DNA of 64,000 nt from Cytophagaceae bacterium (GTDB taxonomy: Bacteria > Bacteroidota > Bacteroidia > Cytophagales > JAIYAX01). This document shows, piece by piece, positions 48,438-63,214 of this stretch (positions within the stretch are counted from its first letter, which is position 1; every line of letters starts with the position of its first letter). A model generated the notes under the pieces. It ran no database searches and was not told where the DNA came from. It saw only the letters and a program-made list of their open reading frames with translations. Made by a program: the position numbers and the translations under genes. The stretch covers positions 1-64,000 of the forward strand of contig JAIYAX010000007.1 in assembly GCA_027488815.1 (NCBI GenBank), in the 5' to 3' direction.

Positions 48438-48570
48438 GCTATAAAGTCCTATTAGATGTTCACACATAACAGTCTTTGGCTCATACCAATTTGTCGAACG
48501 CCTTCGTTGCAAACAAAGATGATTGTGGGGCAAAGGCGATTTAGATGTTAAGCCTGAGTAAAGATATTGC

Positions 48571-48601
48571 TTGTTCCACTATTGGGAACTTCCTATATTT
48601 G
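48571..48601 (+). promoter_or_regulatory. Promoter of higBA with inverted repeat
   Basis: TTG (48571-48573) and TATATTTG (48594-48601) are 20 bp apart, a full match. Between them lies GTTCC-N7-GGAAC (48573-48589), a likely operator for the antitoxin. The GTG start of the toxin is at 48606, so the mRNA would have almost no leader. Confidence 0.6.
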
Positions 48602-48605
48602 CAGA

Positions 48606-48899
48606 GTGAGAGTAATAGCTAAGAAGACATTGAAGGTCTTTTGGCTTAAACACAGCGATTGTGCTGAACAACTGAAATCCTGGTACAAAGAAGCTGAAGA
48701 AGCCCATTGGTCGACACCACAAAATCTAAAAAAGTTGTATCCTACCGCAAGTATTCTTGGAGATAACAGGGTAGTATTTAACATTAAAGGGAACAGTTAT
48801 CGACTAATCGTAAAAATCAACTATGACTATTCAATCGTTTGGATAAGATTTCTTGGAACTCATGCAGAATACGACAAGATCAACGCATTAACCATATGA
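48606..48899 (+). CDS. HigB-type mRNA interferase toxin
   Basis: A 97-aa RelE-fold toxin of the HigB family, GTG start giving MRVIAKKTLKVFWLKH. ASILGDNRVVFNIKGNSYRLIVKINY and FLGTHAEYDKINA are family signatures, including the catalytic basic and His residues. It cleaves mRNA on the ribosome. The antitoxin follows within 5 bp, the usual toxin-first HigBA order. Confidence 0.92.
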   Translation: MRVIAKKTLKVFWLKHSDCAEQLKSWYKEAEEAHWSTPQNLKKLYPTASILGDNRVVFNIKGNSYRLIVKINYDYSIVWIRFLGTHAEYDKINALTI

Positions 48900-48903
48900 A
48901 CTC

Positions 48904-49260
48904 ATGAAATTAAGAGTAATTAAAACAGAGGCCCAATACCAGGAAGCATTAAAGAGGCTTGATGAAATTTTTGATTCTAAAAAAGGATCTGAAAACGCTG
49001 ATGAATTAGAACTTCTTTCTTTTTTAATAGAAAAATATGAAAATGAGACAAGTCCAATAGATTTACCCGACCCAATCGAAGCGATCAAGTTTCGAATGGA
49101 ACAATTAGGTTATAAACAAAAGGACTTAGCGGTAATTATTGGCTTAAAAAGTAGAGTTAGTGAGGTATTGCAGCGCAAGAGGAAGCTGAGTTTAGATATG
49201 ATCAGAAAACTACATGTCTCATTGGGGATTCCGACGGAGGTACTAATAAAAGAGTACTAG
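48904..49260 (+). CDS. HigA-type antitoxin (XRE helix-turn-helix)
   Basis: A 118-aa antitoxin. The N-terminal helical part (about residues 1-55) binds the toxin; IEAIKFRMEQLGYKQKDLAVIIG and RVSEVLQRKRKLSLDMIRKL form the XRE DNA-binding helices. It also represses the operon in typical HigBA systems. Confidence 0.9.
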   Translation: MKLRVIKTEAQYQEALKRLDEIFDSKKGSENADELELLSFLIEKYENETSPIDLPDPIEAIKFRMEQLGYKQKDLAVIIGLKSRVSEVLQRKRKLSLDMIRKLHVSLGIPTEVLIKEY

Positions 49261-49507: not shown

Positions 49508-50950
49508 ATGGGAAGAATAAGCCTTATTCCAACAGAAAAAATAGTAGAGCGCTTACGTTACGAAAATCCCTGGTGGGTGAATAAGCAAATCCCTGAAGTG
49601 TACAGTAAAATGGCCCAAAGACAATACTTCAGGTTGTTTTATCCCTATGTAATGGAGAAAAACATAAGAAGGGCTTTGGTTCTTATGGGACCAAGGCGTG
49701 TTGGGAAAACGGTCATGTTGTTTCACAGTATTCAACAGTTACTTACTGAAAAGGTAAATCCTCAAAAAATATTTTTCATTGGGATAGACAACCCCATTTA
49801 TGTTCATCTAAGTTTAGAAGACATCTTAAATCTTTGTAAACAATCACTCAATCAGGACCATTTAAACGGTTGTTATGTATTTTTCGACGAAATACAATAC
49901 CTGAAGGACTGGGAACGCCACCTTAAAGTGCTGGTTGACTCCTTTCCTGAAACGAAGTTTATCGTATCCGGTTCAGCAGCAGCTGCCTTAAAATGGCACA
50001 GTACGGAAAGCGGAGCAGGCAGATTTACAGATTTTATATTGCCGCCACTTACTTTTCAAGAGTACATTCATCTAAAGGAGATGAACCATCTGATCTACAA
50101 TGGAACAATACGCTATGGAGAAAATCAAATACCCTATTGGCTTACGCACGATATAAAGGCACTGAATCGAGAGTTCGTTCATTACCTCAACTTTGGTGGT
50201 TATCCTGAAGTTGTTTTAAGTGAAAAGATACAAAGCGATATGGGGCGATACGTAAAAAACGATATAGTAGACAAAGTGTTGCTGAGAGATTTGCCAAGTT
50301 TATATGGCATCAAAGATGTTCAGGAGTTAAACCGATTTTTTACTTATATCGCTTATAACACAGGTAATGAGTTTTCCTATGAAGCCATGAGTAAAGAAAG
50401 TGGTATACAAAAAGACACCTTGAAGAAATACCTGGACTATTTAGAAGCTGCTTTCTTAATCAAAGTATTAAACAAAGTGGACACAACAGCTAAACGACTA
50501 AAACGAATAACCAGCTTCAAAGTGTATCTGACCAATCCCTCACTGCGTACGGCCTTGTTTTCACCCATTGGTGAAACGGACAATGAAATGGGGAATATGG
50601 TGGAAACAGCGGTGCTGTCACAATGGATGCATAGCGAAAAATTAGATTTGGCTTACGCCCGTTGGAAAGAAGGTAGAAAGGAAGGAGAAGTAGACGTAGT
50701 GCTGCTGGATGATAAAAAGTATAAACCATTGTGGGGTGTTGAGATCAAGTGGAGTAATCGATACTTTGAAAAACCCCATGAATTGAAAAGCTTGATACAC
50801 TTCTGCAAGAGCAACCAATTTCAGGAGGCTTTGGTGACATCAATAGATCAGCCAGGGATGAAGCAACTACAAGGATTGTTGGTTTCATTTGTTCCCGCCT
50901 CCATTTATTGTTACAATATTGGCGACATGACACTGAAGATAAAGAATTAA
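49508..50950 (+). CDS. AAA_14/DUF4143 P-loop ATPase
   Basis: A 480-aa ATPase. Walker A is MGPRRVGKTVML, Walker B is YVFFDEIQYLKDW, and SGSAAAALK is the sensor-1 region. The C-terminal DUF4143 domain (about residues 350-480) ends with EGEVDVVLLDD...WGVEIKWS, a D-E-x-K restriction-nuclease-like core (D-x-n-E-x-K). This family is common in accessory regions and its role is unknown. A weak -7 box (TATACTTG, 49482-49489) and a 13-bp inverted repeat (CTATTT-A-AAATAG, 49469-49481) lie upstream. Confidence 0.88.
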   Translation: MGRISLIPTEKIVERLRYENPWWVNKQIPEVYSKMAQRQYFRLFYPYVMEKNIRRALVLMGPRRVGKTVMLFHSIQQLLTEKVNPQKIFFIGIDNPIYVHLSLEDILNLCKQSLNQDHLNGCYVFFDEIQYLKDWERHLKVLVDSFPETKFIVSGSAAAALKWHSTESGAGRFTDFILPPLTFQEYIHLKEMNHLIYNGTIRYGENQIPYWLTHDIKALNREFVHYLNFGGYPEVVLSEKIQSDMGRYVKNDIVDKVLLRDLPSLYGIKDVQELNRFFTYIAYNTGNEFSYEAMSKESGIQKDTLKKYLDYLEAAFLIKVLNKVDTTAKRLKRITSFKVYLTNPSLRTALFSPIGETDNEMGNMVETAVLSQWMHSEKLDLAYARWKEGRKEGEVDVVLLDDKKYKPLWGVEIKWSNRYFEKPHELKSLIHFCKSNQFQEALVTSIDQPGMKQLQGLLVSFVPASIYCYNIGDMTLKIKN

Positions 50951-50986
50951 AAGTACTATTTGCAGCAATATGAAAATCACTTGCTC

Positions 50987-51493
50987 ATGAGACACTTCTT
51001 AATTATGCCAATCATTTTATTGCTAATAAGTAGTTGTAAGAATAACAAACCAGAAAGTTCATCACAAATACTACTTGATACAGTTGCTGTAAAGAATTGG
51101 CTGACTAAAGTTATTATTGATTACCGAAACAGTGAGGCTTCGCTGGCCAACGAAAATCAACTCAGCTCATTTTTAACAGATGACTATTACAGGTATAAAT
51201 CAATGGCTATTGGAATAGAGTATGACACTATAACCAGGGAGCAGTTTGATGAAAAATGGAAAGCAAACTTCCAAACAGAATATGTTGGTAAAATGGGATT
51301 TTTTAATTGGTGTCAAGACTGCGGTACGGTAGAAGTTCCTTCATGCAGTTTTTTAAGACCAATTAGTTCGTCCGCTCAAATCTTTCGAGTTGTACTTAAG
51401 GATGTTCGATGGCAGTCAAATAGCGAAATGGACGTTGTAGTAGTTTTCAAAGAAAATCAATTGTTGATTTCAGACGTTCGACATTATGATTAG
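50987..51493 (+). CDS. Hypothetical lipoprotein
   Basis: A 168-aa lipoprotein from ATG 50987: signal MRHFLIMPIILLLISSCKNN with lipobox ISSC. The rest is mixed alpha/beta with a conserved-looking FNWCQDCGTVE (CxxC). No domain recognised. The gene lies between the ATPase and the HEPN-like gene, in the AT-richer patch. A long in-frame extension upstream to 50960 is not preferred. Confidence 0.65.
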   Translation: MRHFLIMPIILLLISSCKNNKPESSSQILLDTVAVKNWLTKVIIDYRNSEASLANENQLSSFLTDDYYRYKSMAIGIEYDTITREQFDEKWKANFQTEYVGKMGFFNWCQDCGTVEVPSCSFLRPISSSAQIFRVVLKDVRWQSNSEMDVVVVFKENQLLISDVRHYD

Positions 51494-51707
51494 GCCTTTT
51501 AGCCATCACCATCTTTATGCCTGTGTCTTGAAGGTGAATGTTGAGCTATTAGAACAATTTAGAGCCAGTAACAGGCTTTTGGCTCAAAAGAGGGCGATAT
51601 TGTATTATAAATTTTACCTTGCTTCAGCTTTATTATTGTGTTGAAAGATTATTGCTCCGAAATTCGCTTCTTCGCAATATCCCAAAATCGTTGCGGTTTA
51701 TTTGCTT

Positions 51708-52289
51708 ATGAAAAATTTAGATTTTCGATTATCTAGGTGGAGAGATAAATTAGTTTCGGAAGTTAAAGTTCCATTAGATTTGTGTGACAAAATAGCAACA
51801 GCTATTGAACTTGAAATTGAGAGAATGACAGATGAGGAAAGGAGGAGTTTAAAGGAGGCCTCTCCAATTGATTTAAAGGTAAGAATCGAGGAGTTGCTAG
51901 CATTTCAGGTAATGATGGACACTTTTAACAAAGTAAAACCTAGACCTGAAATTGTAAGGACACAAGTGATTGCACAAAACTACATTTGCTTTGTTTACTT
52001 AAAGGACACGCTTTTTGAGAGATTGAAGGTAATTTCGCAGCCTGGCACTGTGACGAAAAAGTGTTGCAAATATCTATTGAACAACCCTGTTCGAGCATTT
52101 AGAAATTCTATAGCACATGGTAACTGGGCCTACAAATAAGATTTTTCTGGTTTAGAGTTTTGGGCGCACAAGGGAGAACCTAATGGACAACCTATGGATA
52201 AATGGGAGGTTTCCGGAGACGATTTAGATTTTTGGCAAGCATTATCTCGTACAGTTGCCTACACTACATATTTGACATTAACAAAGTAG
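51708..52289 (+). pseudogene. HEPN-like gene interrupted by one in-frame stop
   Basis: From ATG 51708 a frame runs 143 codons to TAA (52137-52139), then continues in the same frame for 49 codons to TAG 52287. The first part ends RNSIAHGNWAYK, with R132-x4-H137, the HEPN RNase motif. The second part reads DFSGLEFWAHKGEPN ... WEVSGDDLDFWQALSRTVAY, which continues the same domain. The single stop therefore splits a protein of about 192 residues. Possible readings are a recent nonsense mutation, a sequencing error, or programmed readthrough. No antitoxin (MNT-type nucleotidyltransferase) is next to it. Confidence 0.7.
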
Positions 52290-52420: not shown

Positions 52421-52460
52421 TTTGCCACTTATCTGAAACAGTTACATTTGCAACTGTTTC
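52421..52460 (+). promoter_or_regulatory. Promoter and palindromic operator of the marR efflux operon
   Basis: TTTG (52421-52424) and TACATTTG (52443-52450) are 18 bp apart. A 9-8-9 inverted repeat, GAAACAGTT (52435-52443) and AACTGTTTC (52452-52460), brackets the -7 box. The ATG at 52465 is 14 bp after the box. This is where an autorepressing MarR protein would bind. Confidence 0.8.
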
Positions 52461-52464
52461 AATC

Positions 52465-52941
52465 ATGCCATTTCTCTACGACAAAGAAGATTCCATAGGC
52501 TTTTTGCTTCATCGCACTTCCAGAAGCCTGGTGCAGCTCTTCAATGAGCGTTTTGCAGCGCATGGCATCGACTTGCGCACAGAGCACTGGGCCGTCCTTT
52601 ACCATGTTTTTGAAAAGGGCGATGTGCAGCAGCAGGAGCTGATGTCGCTCACCTGCACCGACAAAACTGCCCTCACCCGTGCCATCGATCACCTTGTGGA
52701 GCAGGGCCTCGTGCAGCGCAGAGAAATGGAGAGCGACCGCAGAAAACAAATGATCTCCATCAGCCCCCTTGCACTACAGCATAAAGACCATTTCACAGGC
52801 ATCGTGATGAACGAGATCAGAACAGAGGCCTGCCGGGCACTCAGTCAGGAGGAGCAAATGCAGCTCAAACAACTGCTCAACAAGATTTACTTCAGCATAC
52901 AGTCAGCTCAGGCACAAAAAACGACCCCATCAAATCCATGA
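52465..52941 (+). CDS. MarR-family transcriptional regulator
   Basis: A 158-aa winged-helix regulator. FLLHRTSRSLVQLFNERFAAHGI is the dimer helix, VQQQELMSLTCTDKTALTRAIDHLVEQGLVQRREMESDRRKQMISI is the wHTH with the typical DxRxK wing (SDRRKQ). It heads an efflux operon, with a 9-bp-arm palindrome over its own promoter, so it should act as an autorepressor released by a small ligand. The stop overlaps the next ATG (ATGA). Confidence 0.93.
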   Translation: MPFLYDKEDSIGFLLHRTSRSLVQLFNERFAAHGIDLRTEHWAVLYHVFEKGDVQQQELMSLTCTDKTALTRAIDHLVEQGLVQRREMESDRRKQMISISPLALQHKDHFTGIVMNEIRTEACRALSQEEQMQLKQLLNKIYFSIQSAQAQKTTPSNP

Positions 52942-60946: not shown

Positions 60947-63214
60947 ATGAAAAGAAGTTTACTCATCCTCGCCTTCCTATGTATGATCAGCGGGGCAAAA
61001 GCGCAGCAAGGAGCCAACCTTTGGATGTTTTTACCTGAAACCCCTGACGGTCAGGGAGAGCCAAGAATACAGGCTGTTGACAAAAGGCTGTACCAACTCG
61101 GGCTTACAGCTTTGAAACAAACCCTTCTTTCTGTGCCGAATGAAAGCTCAACAGAAGCATTTTCTTCGACATTTATCATCAGTCTGCCGGACCCTTCAGG
61201 GCATTTTCAGCAGTTTAGGTTGGTTGAAAGTCCTGTTATGCAGGAAGGTTTGCAAGCCCGTTATCCTGAGATCAGAACATATCTAGGGCAAGGAGTTACC
61301 GATGGCACCGCCAACCTGAGGATGGACATTACCCCACACGGCTTTCATGCAATGGTGATTTCTGCAAGAGAGAGTTATTTTATTGATCCCTACTACAATG
61401 GTACTACCGGAATTTACATCGTTTATTATCGAAAGGATTTCCGAAGACCGGTTTCAAAAGTGATGACCGAAGGTCGGCCTGAGCCCTCAGCCATCAATCT
61501 CGATAGCCTGGTACAGAGCATGAAAAGCAGTGGAATATTAACGCCTAACGGTGGCACCCGTCGGACCTTCAGACTTGCAGTAGCCACTTCAAAGGAGTAT
61601 ACCAATTTTCATGGAGGAACTGTTCCGTTGGGTTTATCTGCAGTGGTTACGAGTGTGAACAGGGTTGTGGGAGTTTATGAGCGAGAGTTTGCGGTAAGGC
61701 TTACACTGATCGCCAATAATGATCTGGTGATTTATACGGATATTAATCCTGGACCCTGGACCAACCAGAGCAGTGCTCCAACGACCATAACCCAAAACCA
61801 AACCAATATGGATGCGGTTATCGGCTCGGCAAACTACGACATTGGACACGTTTTTACGACCGGAGCAGGTGGTCTAGCATCACTTGGTTCCGTTTGCTCT
61901 GGTTTTGCAAAAGCCAGAGGGGTTACGGGCATTTCTGCTCCAGTAGGGGATCCATTCGATATTGATTATGTAGCACATGAAATTGGGCACCAGTTTGGCG
62001 GCTCCCATACGTTTAATGGTTCAACAGGCAACTGCCTTACTGAAATAAGTACCGCCCATGCCTGGGAGCCCGGTAGCGGAAGCACGATCATGGCTTATGC
62101 CGATTTATGCCCGGGACAAAATATTCAATCGAACTCTGATGATTATTTTCATACCGGCAGTTATGAGCAAATGCTGGCTTTTATTCAGTCCATCAATTTC
62201 TGTGCTGTGCAAACAACCACAGGGAACAACCCTCCCAATGCCTCAGTTCCATTTATCACCTACACTATTCCAAGAGGAACACCGTTTAGTCTGACAGGCA
62301 CAGGGAGTGACCCTAATCCGGATACACTTACCTTCAATTGGGAGCAAATAGATCTTGGGCCACAAGGAGTACCCAATTCTCCAAGCGGACAAGCACCTGT
62401 TTTCCGAAGTGTTAAGCCCGATACCAGCCGTACCCGGTTTTTCCCATCGCTGAGTTTTCTCAGGTCTAATGCAAGTACTGCTGTTCCTTTAGGCGAAGCA
62501 CTTGCGAATTATGGCAGGACTTTAGGATTTCGATTTACGGTGCGTGACAACAGAGCCGGCTCCGGAGGGGTAAATAACTCAAGCACCTATACAGTCACTG
62601 TTGCTTCAGAAGGTCCTGTAAATGTTACTTCACCTTCATCAAGTCTAAATCAGGTTTTTTGGACACCAGCCCAGTCAAGAACAGTATCCTGGACAGTAAA
62701 CAATACCAATCTAGCCCCTGTGGCCGCTACCGATGTGAACATAGAATTTTCTTTGGATGATGGCGTTACCTGGCCCATTACCTTAGTGAGCAATACCCCT
62801 AACGACGGAACTGAAAACGTCATTGTCCCCAATATTACCACCAATAATGGACGTGTTCGGGTTGTTTCGGTACTGCCCAATATTTGGTTTGCATGGGCAA
62901 GAACAAGGGTAAGAATTACCGCTGTAGCTGGTGTCAATGAACAGGTTGACCTGAATAAAATCTTGGAAGTATTCCCCAACCCGGCAAAGGATATCCTGTA
63001 TCTGGTTTTTGACCATGAGTTGATCCAGCCGAATCGGATTGAGCTTTTTGACCTGTTGGGAAAGCAGGTTAAGTTATGGAATAAAATGCCTGATCATGAT
63101 CATGCCGGAGAACTTCGATTGCCTTTGGATGAACTGAACACCGGGCTTTACATGCTCAGTCTTCACACCTCCGATGGGAAGCATGTTTCGAAAAAAATCT
63201 ATATTCAACCCTGA
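60947..63214 (+). CDS. Secreted reprolysin-like zinc metalloprotease with T9SS sorting domain
   Basis: A 755-aa exported protease. Signal peptide to about residue 20; propeptide about 45-165; catalytic domain from about residue 206 with VAHEIGHQFGGSH (H344, E345, H348, H354) and the Met-turn IMAYADLC near residue 388. Ig-like beta modules follow (about 425-660), and the C-terminus (VFPNPAKDILYLVF to GLYMLSLHTSDGKHVSKKIYI) is a type A T9SS domain. It is likely a surface or secreted protease kept latent by the propeptide. Confidence 0.9.
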   Translation: MKRSLLILAFLCMISGAKAQQGANLWMFLPETPDGQGEPRIQAVDKRLYQLGLTALKQTLLSVPNESSTEAFSSTFIISLPDPSGHFQQFRLVESPVMQEGLQARYPEIRTYLGQGVTDGTANLRMDITPHGFHAMVISARESYFIDPYYNGTTGIYIVYYRKDFRRPVSKVMTEGRPEPSAINLDSLVQSMKSSGILTPNGGTRRTFRLAVATSKEYTNFHGGTVPLGLSAVVTSVNRVVGVYEREFAVRLTLIANNDLVIYTDINPGPWTNQSSAPTTITQNQTNMDAVIGSANYDIGHVFTTGAGGLASLGSVCSGFAKARGVTGISAPVGDPFDIDYVAHEIGHQFGGSHTFNGSTGNCLTEISTAHAWEPGSGSTIMAYADLCPGQNIQSNSDDYFHTGSYEQMLAFIQSINFCAVQTTTGNNPPNASVPFITYTIPRGTPFSLTGTGSDPNPDTLTFNWEQIDLGPQGVPNSPSGQAPVFRSVKPDTSRTRFFPSLSFLRSNASTAVPLGEALANYGRTLGFRFTVRDNRAGSGGVNNSSTYTVTVASEGPVNVTSPSSSLNQVFWTPAQSRTVSWTVNNTNLAPVAATDVNIEFSLDDGVTWPITLVSNTPNDGTENVIVPNITTNNGRVRVVSVLPNIWFAWARTRVRITAVAGVNEQVDLNKILEVFPNPAKDILYLVFDHELIQPNRIELFDLLGKQVKLWNKMPDHDHAGELRLPLDELNTGLYMLSLHTSDGKHVSKKIYIQP

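What the first reader, a model, noticed from the sequence alone, without database searches (positions are those of the whole stretch)
51708..52289. HEPN-like gene split by a single in-frame TAA
The protein stops right after the RNSIAHGNW (R-x4-H) motif, but the frame goes on for 49 codons that look like the rest of the domain, with no shift of frame. Options are a fresh inactivation of a toxic RNase, a sequencing error, or a regulated readthrough (next base G, context TAAG).
Basis: seen in the sequence. Interest (0 to 1): 0.55.

Follow-up and report, generated by a model that had tools for sequence, protein, structure and literature searches.

The report
Recently broken HEPN-like nuclease gene
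A bacterial gene that probably encodes an RNA-cutting protein of the HEPN kind has been cut short by one stop codon, and intact relatives in other bacteria suggest that this is most likely a fresh, ordinary loss of the gene.

Summary
In detail: ATG at 51708, 143 codons, TAA at 52137-52139, then 49 more codons in frame to TAG at 52287-52289. The 49 codons match the C-terminus of intact relatives (single-comparison E 8e-15 and 5e-17). Of eight relatives found, six are intact and end near the window's second stop; 7 of 7 that cover the stop column have a sense codon there. The other two are broken differently: a frameshift on an Emticicia plasmid and an internal deletion in L065. So 3 of 9 copies are broken. 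The downstream codons show no decay. Best reading: recent nonsense inactivation of a standalone HEPN-like gene. A sequencing error remains possible. Readthrough is not supported: no relative has the stop, 20 of 36 long ORFs here end in TAA, and none of 33 tRNA genes found reads TAA. HEPN membership is probable, not proven. attC sites flank the gene on both sides in L002 and downstream in L003; the window's own flank is not a convincing attC.

The parts
51708..52139 (+). 5' part of the HEPN-like gene: ATG to in-frame TAA, 143 aa, holds the R-x4-H motif (RNSIAH)
   Evidence: over this part 38-62% identical to seven of the eight relatives; L065, the eighth, was linked through other members
52137..52139 (+). 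premature TAA stop; a sense codon in 7 of 7 relatives that cover the column
52140..52289 (+). remnant of the C-terminus, 49 codons to TAG; corresponds to most of a beta hairpin and the last helix in models of intact relatives; keeps 10 of 10 downstream residues invariant in six intact relatives
51566..51696 (+). weak attC-like inverted repeat just before the ATG; not significant, listed only as a possible relic
   Evidence: score 8.8; 174 of 1500 shuffles and 480 of 3000 real window stretches reach it; bottom-strand fold z 0.73

Best explanation
This is a recently inactivated copy of a rare, mobile, standalone gene of 193-211 aa whose C-terminal ~140 residues are most likely a HEPN ribonuclease domain. 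Shown: one in-frame stop splits a gene that is intact in six of eight relatives found. Inferred: the intact protein works like other HEPN proteins (Arg and His of R-x4-H cutting RNA in a dimer; recalled), probably as a cell-arresting defence or stress nuclease without a dedicated partner gene. Inferred: the stop removes most of the beta hairpin and the last helix of the bundle, so the 143-aa product is probably unfolded and inactive, and the gene is being lost because it is costly or no longer useful. The confidence below is for recent inactivation of the gene; that the domain is a HEPN I put separately at about 0.85.
For: Six intact relatives end near the window's second stop, and 7 of 7 relatives covering the stop column have a sense codon. 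The downstream 49 codons keep 10 of 10 residues invariant in the six intact relatives; mean amino-acid difference from those six is 0.517 downstream and 0.576 upstream. In a simple neutral simulation, 0.1 substitutions per site would leave a stop-free frame with all ten residues in only 5.8% of runs, so the stop is young. Two other copies of nine are broken by unrelated lesions: an 11-nt gap with frameshift in Emticicia and an internal deletion that removes the motif in L065. HEPN: R and H invariant in 8 of 8 rows; PF18736 (HEPN) hit weakly by 5 of 8 members, the only Pfam entry hit by more than one; the domain model has the order helix, helix, broken helix with R-x4-H at its end, hairpin, helix; HEPN toxin 7ae9_D is second of 995 chains aligned, Z 5.4, 114 residues. 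No gene other than the family itself is shared between the nine loci at E 1e-4 within 1.5 to 4 kb.
Against: No reads are available, so the base may be wrong. The absence of decay fits an error or readthrough equally well. HEPN is not clinched: no Foldseek hit under E 0.001, a de novo design scores above the HEPN toxin (Z 6.1), and the tool warns that Z under about 13 for helical bundles may mean only a common arrangement. The full-length model gave no HEPN among the rows shown. The window protein scores 14 bits for PF18736 against a cut-off of 26.6. Upstream, the window has changed 4 of 29 residues invariant in the six intact relatives, which may mean drift or only a divergent clade. Three broken of nine is a small sample, none checked against reads.
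Confidence: 0.74

Rival explanations
1. Sequencing or assembly error: the gene is intact in the real organism and the stop exists only in the record.
For: No decay downstream of the stop, and 7 of 7 relatives covering the column have a sense codon there.
Against: A single substitution-type error in a genome held at 99.6% completeness in 30 contigs is less common than real pseudogenes (general knowledge, not a call). Two other copies are also broken, so loss in this family is plausible by itself.
Confidence: 0.13
2. The 143-aa product is a working shorter protein: the C-terminal helix is dispensable or truncation changes its activity.
For: The R-x4-H motif lies before the stop; the Emticicia copy is also shortened after the motif, to 167 aa.
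Against: 10 of the 35 invariant domain columns lie in the lost part, nine of them in the last helix of the model. The L065 copy loses the motif itself, so the lesions do not converge on one shorter product.
Confidence: 0.08
3. Regulated readthrough: the TAA is read through under some condition to make a 192- or 193-residue HEPN protein.
For: The downstream frame is open and looks selected until recently.
Against: 0 of 7 relatives covering the column have a stop there. None of the 33 tRNA genes found has an anticodon for TAA (the search scored 150 of 215 candidates, so it may be incomplete). TAA is the commonest terminator in the window, 20 of 36 long ORFs. Known bacterial recoding uses UGA or UAG (recalled).
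Confidence: 0.03
4. The downstream frame is chance and the family normally ends at 52139.
For: Only that open frames behind a stop are not rare here (4 of 36).
Against: Six intact relatives continue across the column, with clear homology to the downstream piece.
Confidence: 0.01

Closest known systems
HEPN superfamily (Anantharaman et al. 2013, PMC3710099; passages seen)
   Same: Invariant R-x4-H at the end of helix 3, an acidic residue in helix 2, four main helices, standalone gene in mobile settings.
   Different: Only weak matches to curated family models; a beta hairpin sits between helix 3 and the last helix in the model; an extra helical N-terminal region of about 50 residues.
pEK499_p136 HEPN family (Pfam PF18736)
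   Same: Most frequent weak Pfam match (5 of 8 members, best E 0.0046); in the window protein it covers the motif region.
   Different: 14 bits for the window protein against a cut-off of 26.6: not a member by Pfam's rule.
'Integron cassette HEPN' family, PDB 3JRT (named in PMC3710099, passages seen)
   Same: HEPN-type protein carried by integron cassettes; L002 and L003 of this family have attC sites next to the gene.
   Different: Profile searches of solved structures listed no HEPN entry; no attC shown at the window itself.
HEPN-MNT toxin-antitoxin (PDB 7AE9)
   Same: Moderate structural match to the HEPN toxin, Z 5.4 over 114 residues.
   Different: No partner gene shared next to the nine copies; an MNT partner was not searched for by profile.

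Membership tests
HEPN superfamily | R-x4-6-H motif, conserved | tested here: met
   R132, N133 and H137 invariant in 8 of 8 rows; the ninth copy, L065, has lost the stretch
HEPN superfamily | motif at the end of helix 3, before the loop to helix 4 | tested here: met
   domain model of L063, mean pLDDT 87.1: helices 5-24, 29-58, 64-73, 77-85, 119-139; R81 in helix 77-85 and H86 just behind its end. Predicted, not solved
HEPN superfamily | acidic residue in helix 2 near the motif | tested here: met
   D or E at window position 100 in 8 of 8 rows, inside helix 29-58 of the domain model; its distance to the motif was not measured
HEPN superfamily | four-helix HEPN fold | tested here: inconclusive
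   7ae9_D Z 5.4, rmsd 4.0, 114 aligned; 4nqf_A Z 3.0, 111 aligned; a de novo design Z 6.1 above both; full-length model without HEPN among its rows; Foldseek nothing under E 0.001
HEPN superfamily | RNase activity | not testable with these tools
   needs a biochemical assay
PF18736 pEK499_p136 | score over the curated cut-off | tested here: not met
   window protein 14 bits against 26.6; bits of the other four matching members were not printed, best E 0.0046
integron gene cassette (window copy) | attC site directly flanking the gene | tested here: not met
   upstream candidate 51566-51696 reached by 174 of 1500 shuffles, fold z 0.73, though 0 of 60 in a first small run; downstream reached by 17 of 60
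integron gene cassette (family elsewhere) | attC flanking the gene | tested here: met
   L002 both sides (scores 16.0 and 14.7) and L003 downstream (18.7), 0 of 60 shuffles each; folds z -3.63 for L002 upstream and -4.42 for L003 downstream. Not shown for L005, L006, L007, L063, L064, L065 (lowest there L063 upstream, 2 of 60)
integron gene cassette (window genome) | integron integrase in the genome | tested here: not met
   no TIGR02249 match over the cut-off in G000; over it in the genomes of L002 and L003, on other contigs
pseudogene by nonsense mutation | in-frame stop inside the homologous span of intact relatives | tested here: met
pseudogene by nonsense mutation | the stop is present in the organism, not only in the assembly | not testable with these tools
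   no reads held
programmed stop-codon readthrough | stop kept in relatives | tested here: not met
   0 of 7 relatives covering the column have a stop there
suppressor-tRNA decoding of TAA | a tRNA with anticodon TTA | tested here: inconclusive
   33 tRNA genes found in G000, none with anticodon TTA; the first look scored 150 of 215 candidates and some usual tRNAs were not among the 33, so the set is not complete

The most novel reading that the evidence does not exclude
The stop is a reversible or regulated switch: the cell carries a silent full-length HEPN nuclease whose downstream half stays under selection because it is made by rare readthrough or regained by reversion, for instance during phage attack; the other two broken copies would be parallel silencings of the same costly gene.
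Probability: 0.03. Interest if true: 0.65.

Novelty: new member of a known kind. Interest (0 to 1): 0.2.

Why it matters
It adds a small HEPN-like family with only weak matches in Pfam and NCBIfam (8 members) and none in PADLOC (6 members). It travels partly as integron cassettes and is broken in 3 of the 9 copies found. If that breakage rate held in a larger sample, it would be a handle on the cost of carrying such nucleases. The single stop itself is ordinary.

Tried and rejected
Regulated readthrough: rejected because 0 of 7 relatives share the stop and none of 33 tRNA genes found reads TAA (set not complete). Alternative code: 20 of 36 long ORFs end in TAA.

The window as an integron cassette: I first thought the flank 51566-51696 was an attC; a first run gave 0 of 60 shuffles at or above the score, but a larger run gave 174 of 1500 shuffles and 480 of 3000 real window stretches, and twelve further runs of 120 gave 6 to 21 each, so the first run was luck. 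This also shows that 60 shuffles is a weak test; the L002 and L003 sites stand on their scores (14.7 to 18.7 against 8.8) and folds. Fold z of the window flank was 0.73. One local alignment of this flank to an Emticicia attC-like site was reached by 1 of 500 shuffles, the three others by 50, 127 and 51 of 500: suggestive at most. The two Emticicia sites that flank the gene itself also fail (fold z 0.57 and 0.50; 5 and 32 of 60 shuffles), although two other sites in that array fold well (z -6.38 and -2.32). The L005 site I picked by eye does not fold (z 0.11), and L003's upstream side is not supported (4 of 60).

HEPN by fold: the full-length model showed no HEPN, the viral library nothing under E 0.001, and solved-structure sequence searches only weak hits to non-HEPN entries. 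3JRT, the integron-cassette HEPN named in PMC3710099, was in no list shown; this does not exclude it. PF18736 was searched in 247 genomes to obtain true members for a profile comparison; it rang nowhere, controls included, so it says nothing. PADLOC: 0 of 6 members matched.

More copies, known ones counted: 1 of 59 relatives, the window's own; 2 of 395 of the phylum; 1 of 98 of the class of G142, itself; 1 of 398 of the phylum of L003's genome, itself; 4 of 396 of the phylum of L002's genome, three of them new; 1 of 395 of the window's class, itself; phages none; plasmids one; viral contigs one. These sets overlap and are samples, so they show rarity, not a frequency.

Papers: six full-text searches listed no paper that I recognised as treating stop-split genes of this family. 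Of PMC3710099 I saw passages only; of the rest only the search listings.

Full report
Observation. The window has an ATG at 51708, 143 sense codons, a TAA at 52137-52139 followed by G, 49 further sense codons in the same frame and a TAG at 52287-52289. An open frame behind a stop is not by itself remarkable: 4 of 36 ORFs of 250 aa or more have 49 or more open codons behind the stop, and these run into neighbouring ORFs with starts of their own. What makes this case real is that the downstream piece alone is homologous to the C-terminus of relatives.

Relatives. Six are intact (L002, L003, L005, L006, L063, L064). They continue without interruption over the window's stop column and end near the window's second stop; L064 has a tail of about a dozen residues more. 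With the Emticicia copy, which is still in frame there, 7 of 7 copies covering the column have a sense codon, for three different residues, so the column is not a conserved one.

Age of the stop. Against the six intact relatives the window differs at a mean 0.576 of residues upstream and 0.517 downstream; among the 15 pairs of intact relatives the downstream part is the more variable in 11. All 10 downstream residues invariant among the six are kept; upstream 25 of 29 are kept. In a simple neutral simulation the frame would survive with all ten residues in 58% of runs at 0.02 substitutions per site, 5.8% at 0.1 and 0.5% at 0.2. The stop is therefore young, or is not in the organism.

Other broken copies. 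The Emticicia gene is annotated as a hypothetical protein of 504 bp, 167 aa; aligned with the window it has an 11-nt gap near its end, and the lost C-terminus can be read in another frame. L065 keeps the first 66 or so residues, then lacks about 100 codons including the motif, with the last helix readable in another frame. So 3 of 9 copies are broken, by three unrelated lesions. Nine is a small sample and none was checked against reads.

What the protein is. Pfam and NCBIfam gave only weak hits, PADLOC none and PHROGs two isolated weak ones. PF18736, a HEPN family, is the only Pfam entry hit by more than one member: 5 of 8, best E 0.0046, the window protein 14 bits against a cut-off of 26.6. 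The R and H of R-x4-H are invariant in 8 of 8 rows. The full-length model of L003 (mean pLDDT 86.2) shows no HEPN among its matches. The domain model of L063 (mean pLDDT 87.1) has two long helices, a broken third helix ending in R-x4-H, a beta hairpin and a last helix. In the structural comparison of 995 chains picked by Foldseek, a de novo design is first (Z 6.1, 92 aligned) and the HEPN toxin 7ae9_D second (Z 5.4, 114 aligned), with another HEPN protein tenth (Z 3.0, 111 aligned); the tool warns that such Z values can mean only a common helical arrangement. [quoted passage not shown] I put HEPN at about 0.85 (my estimate). The stop falls a few residues behind helix 3, so the product lacks 10 of 35 invariant domain columns, most of the hairpin and the last helix.

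Setting. L002 has attC-like sites on both sides of the gene and L003 one directly downstream, above all 60 shuffles (folds); L002 has further high-scoring sites in its 10 kb. Their genomes have integron integrases over the curated cut-off, on other contigs. The Emticicia array has attC-like sites, but the two next to the gene are not supported. The window has no site of the score class of L002 and L003 on either strand, its own flank is not convincing, and its genome has no integron integrase over the cut-off. No gene besides the family itself is shared among the nine neighbourhoods (1.5 to 4 kb of flank, E 1e-4). PMC3710099 already names a HEPN family in integron cassettes (PDB 3JRT), so this setting is not new.

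Readthrough. 0 of 7 relatives have the stop; TAA ends 20 of 36 long ORFs in the window; of 33 tRNA genes found in the genome none has anticodon TTA, though that search scored 150 of 215 candidates and is not complete. The organism is probably of the Bacteroidota, from a type IX sorting tail on the protein at 60947-63211; this is an inference.

Verdict. A recently broken copy of a small HEPN-like gene family. Ordinary as a mutation; mildly interesting as a family that is rare, mobile and, in this small sample, often broken.

Noticed in passing
window 48567-49260: HigB-type toxin (PF09907, 113.9 bits) followed by a helix-turn-helix gene (PF01381, 27.6 bits): a plain toxin-antitoxin pair.
   Followed up: partly
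window 49508-51493: AAA_14/DUF4143 ATPase gene to 50950, followed in the same frame by a small lipoprotein-like ORF at 50960-51493 without Pfam or NCBIfam match.
   Followed up: partly
window 52434-52461: 13-nt inverted repeat, 92% complementary, 2-nt spacer, directly before the MarR-type regulator gene at 52465 and RND efflux genes; may be the regulator's operator.
   Followed up: no
L007 3734-4282: A second HEPN-like gene (PF18735, 20.5 bits against a cut-off of 28.4) in the same Emticicia plasmid array, near RloB-type and Kwa defence genes.
   Followed up: partly
L007 4795-4888: Strongly folding attC-like site (z -6.38); similar sequence on Empedobacter, Riemerella and Myroides plasmids, in two Empedobacter records at an annotated lnu(H) gene.
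   Followed up: partly
L065 1501-1776: Copy with an internal deletion of about 100 codons; the junction looks like a short direct repeat (read by eye).
   Followed up: partly
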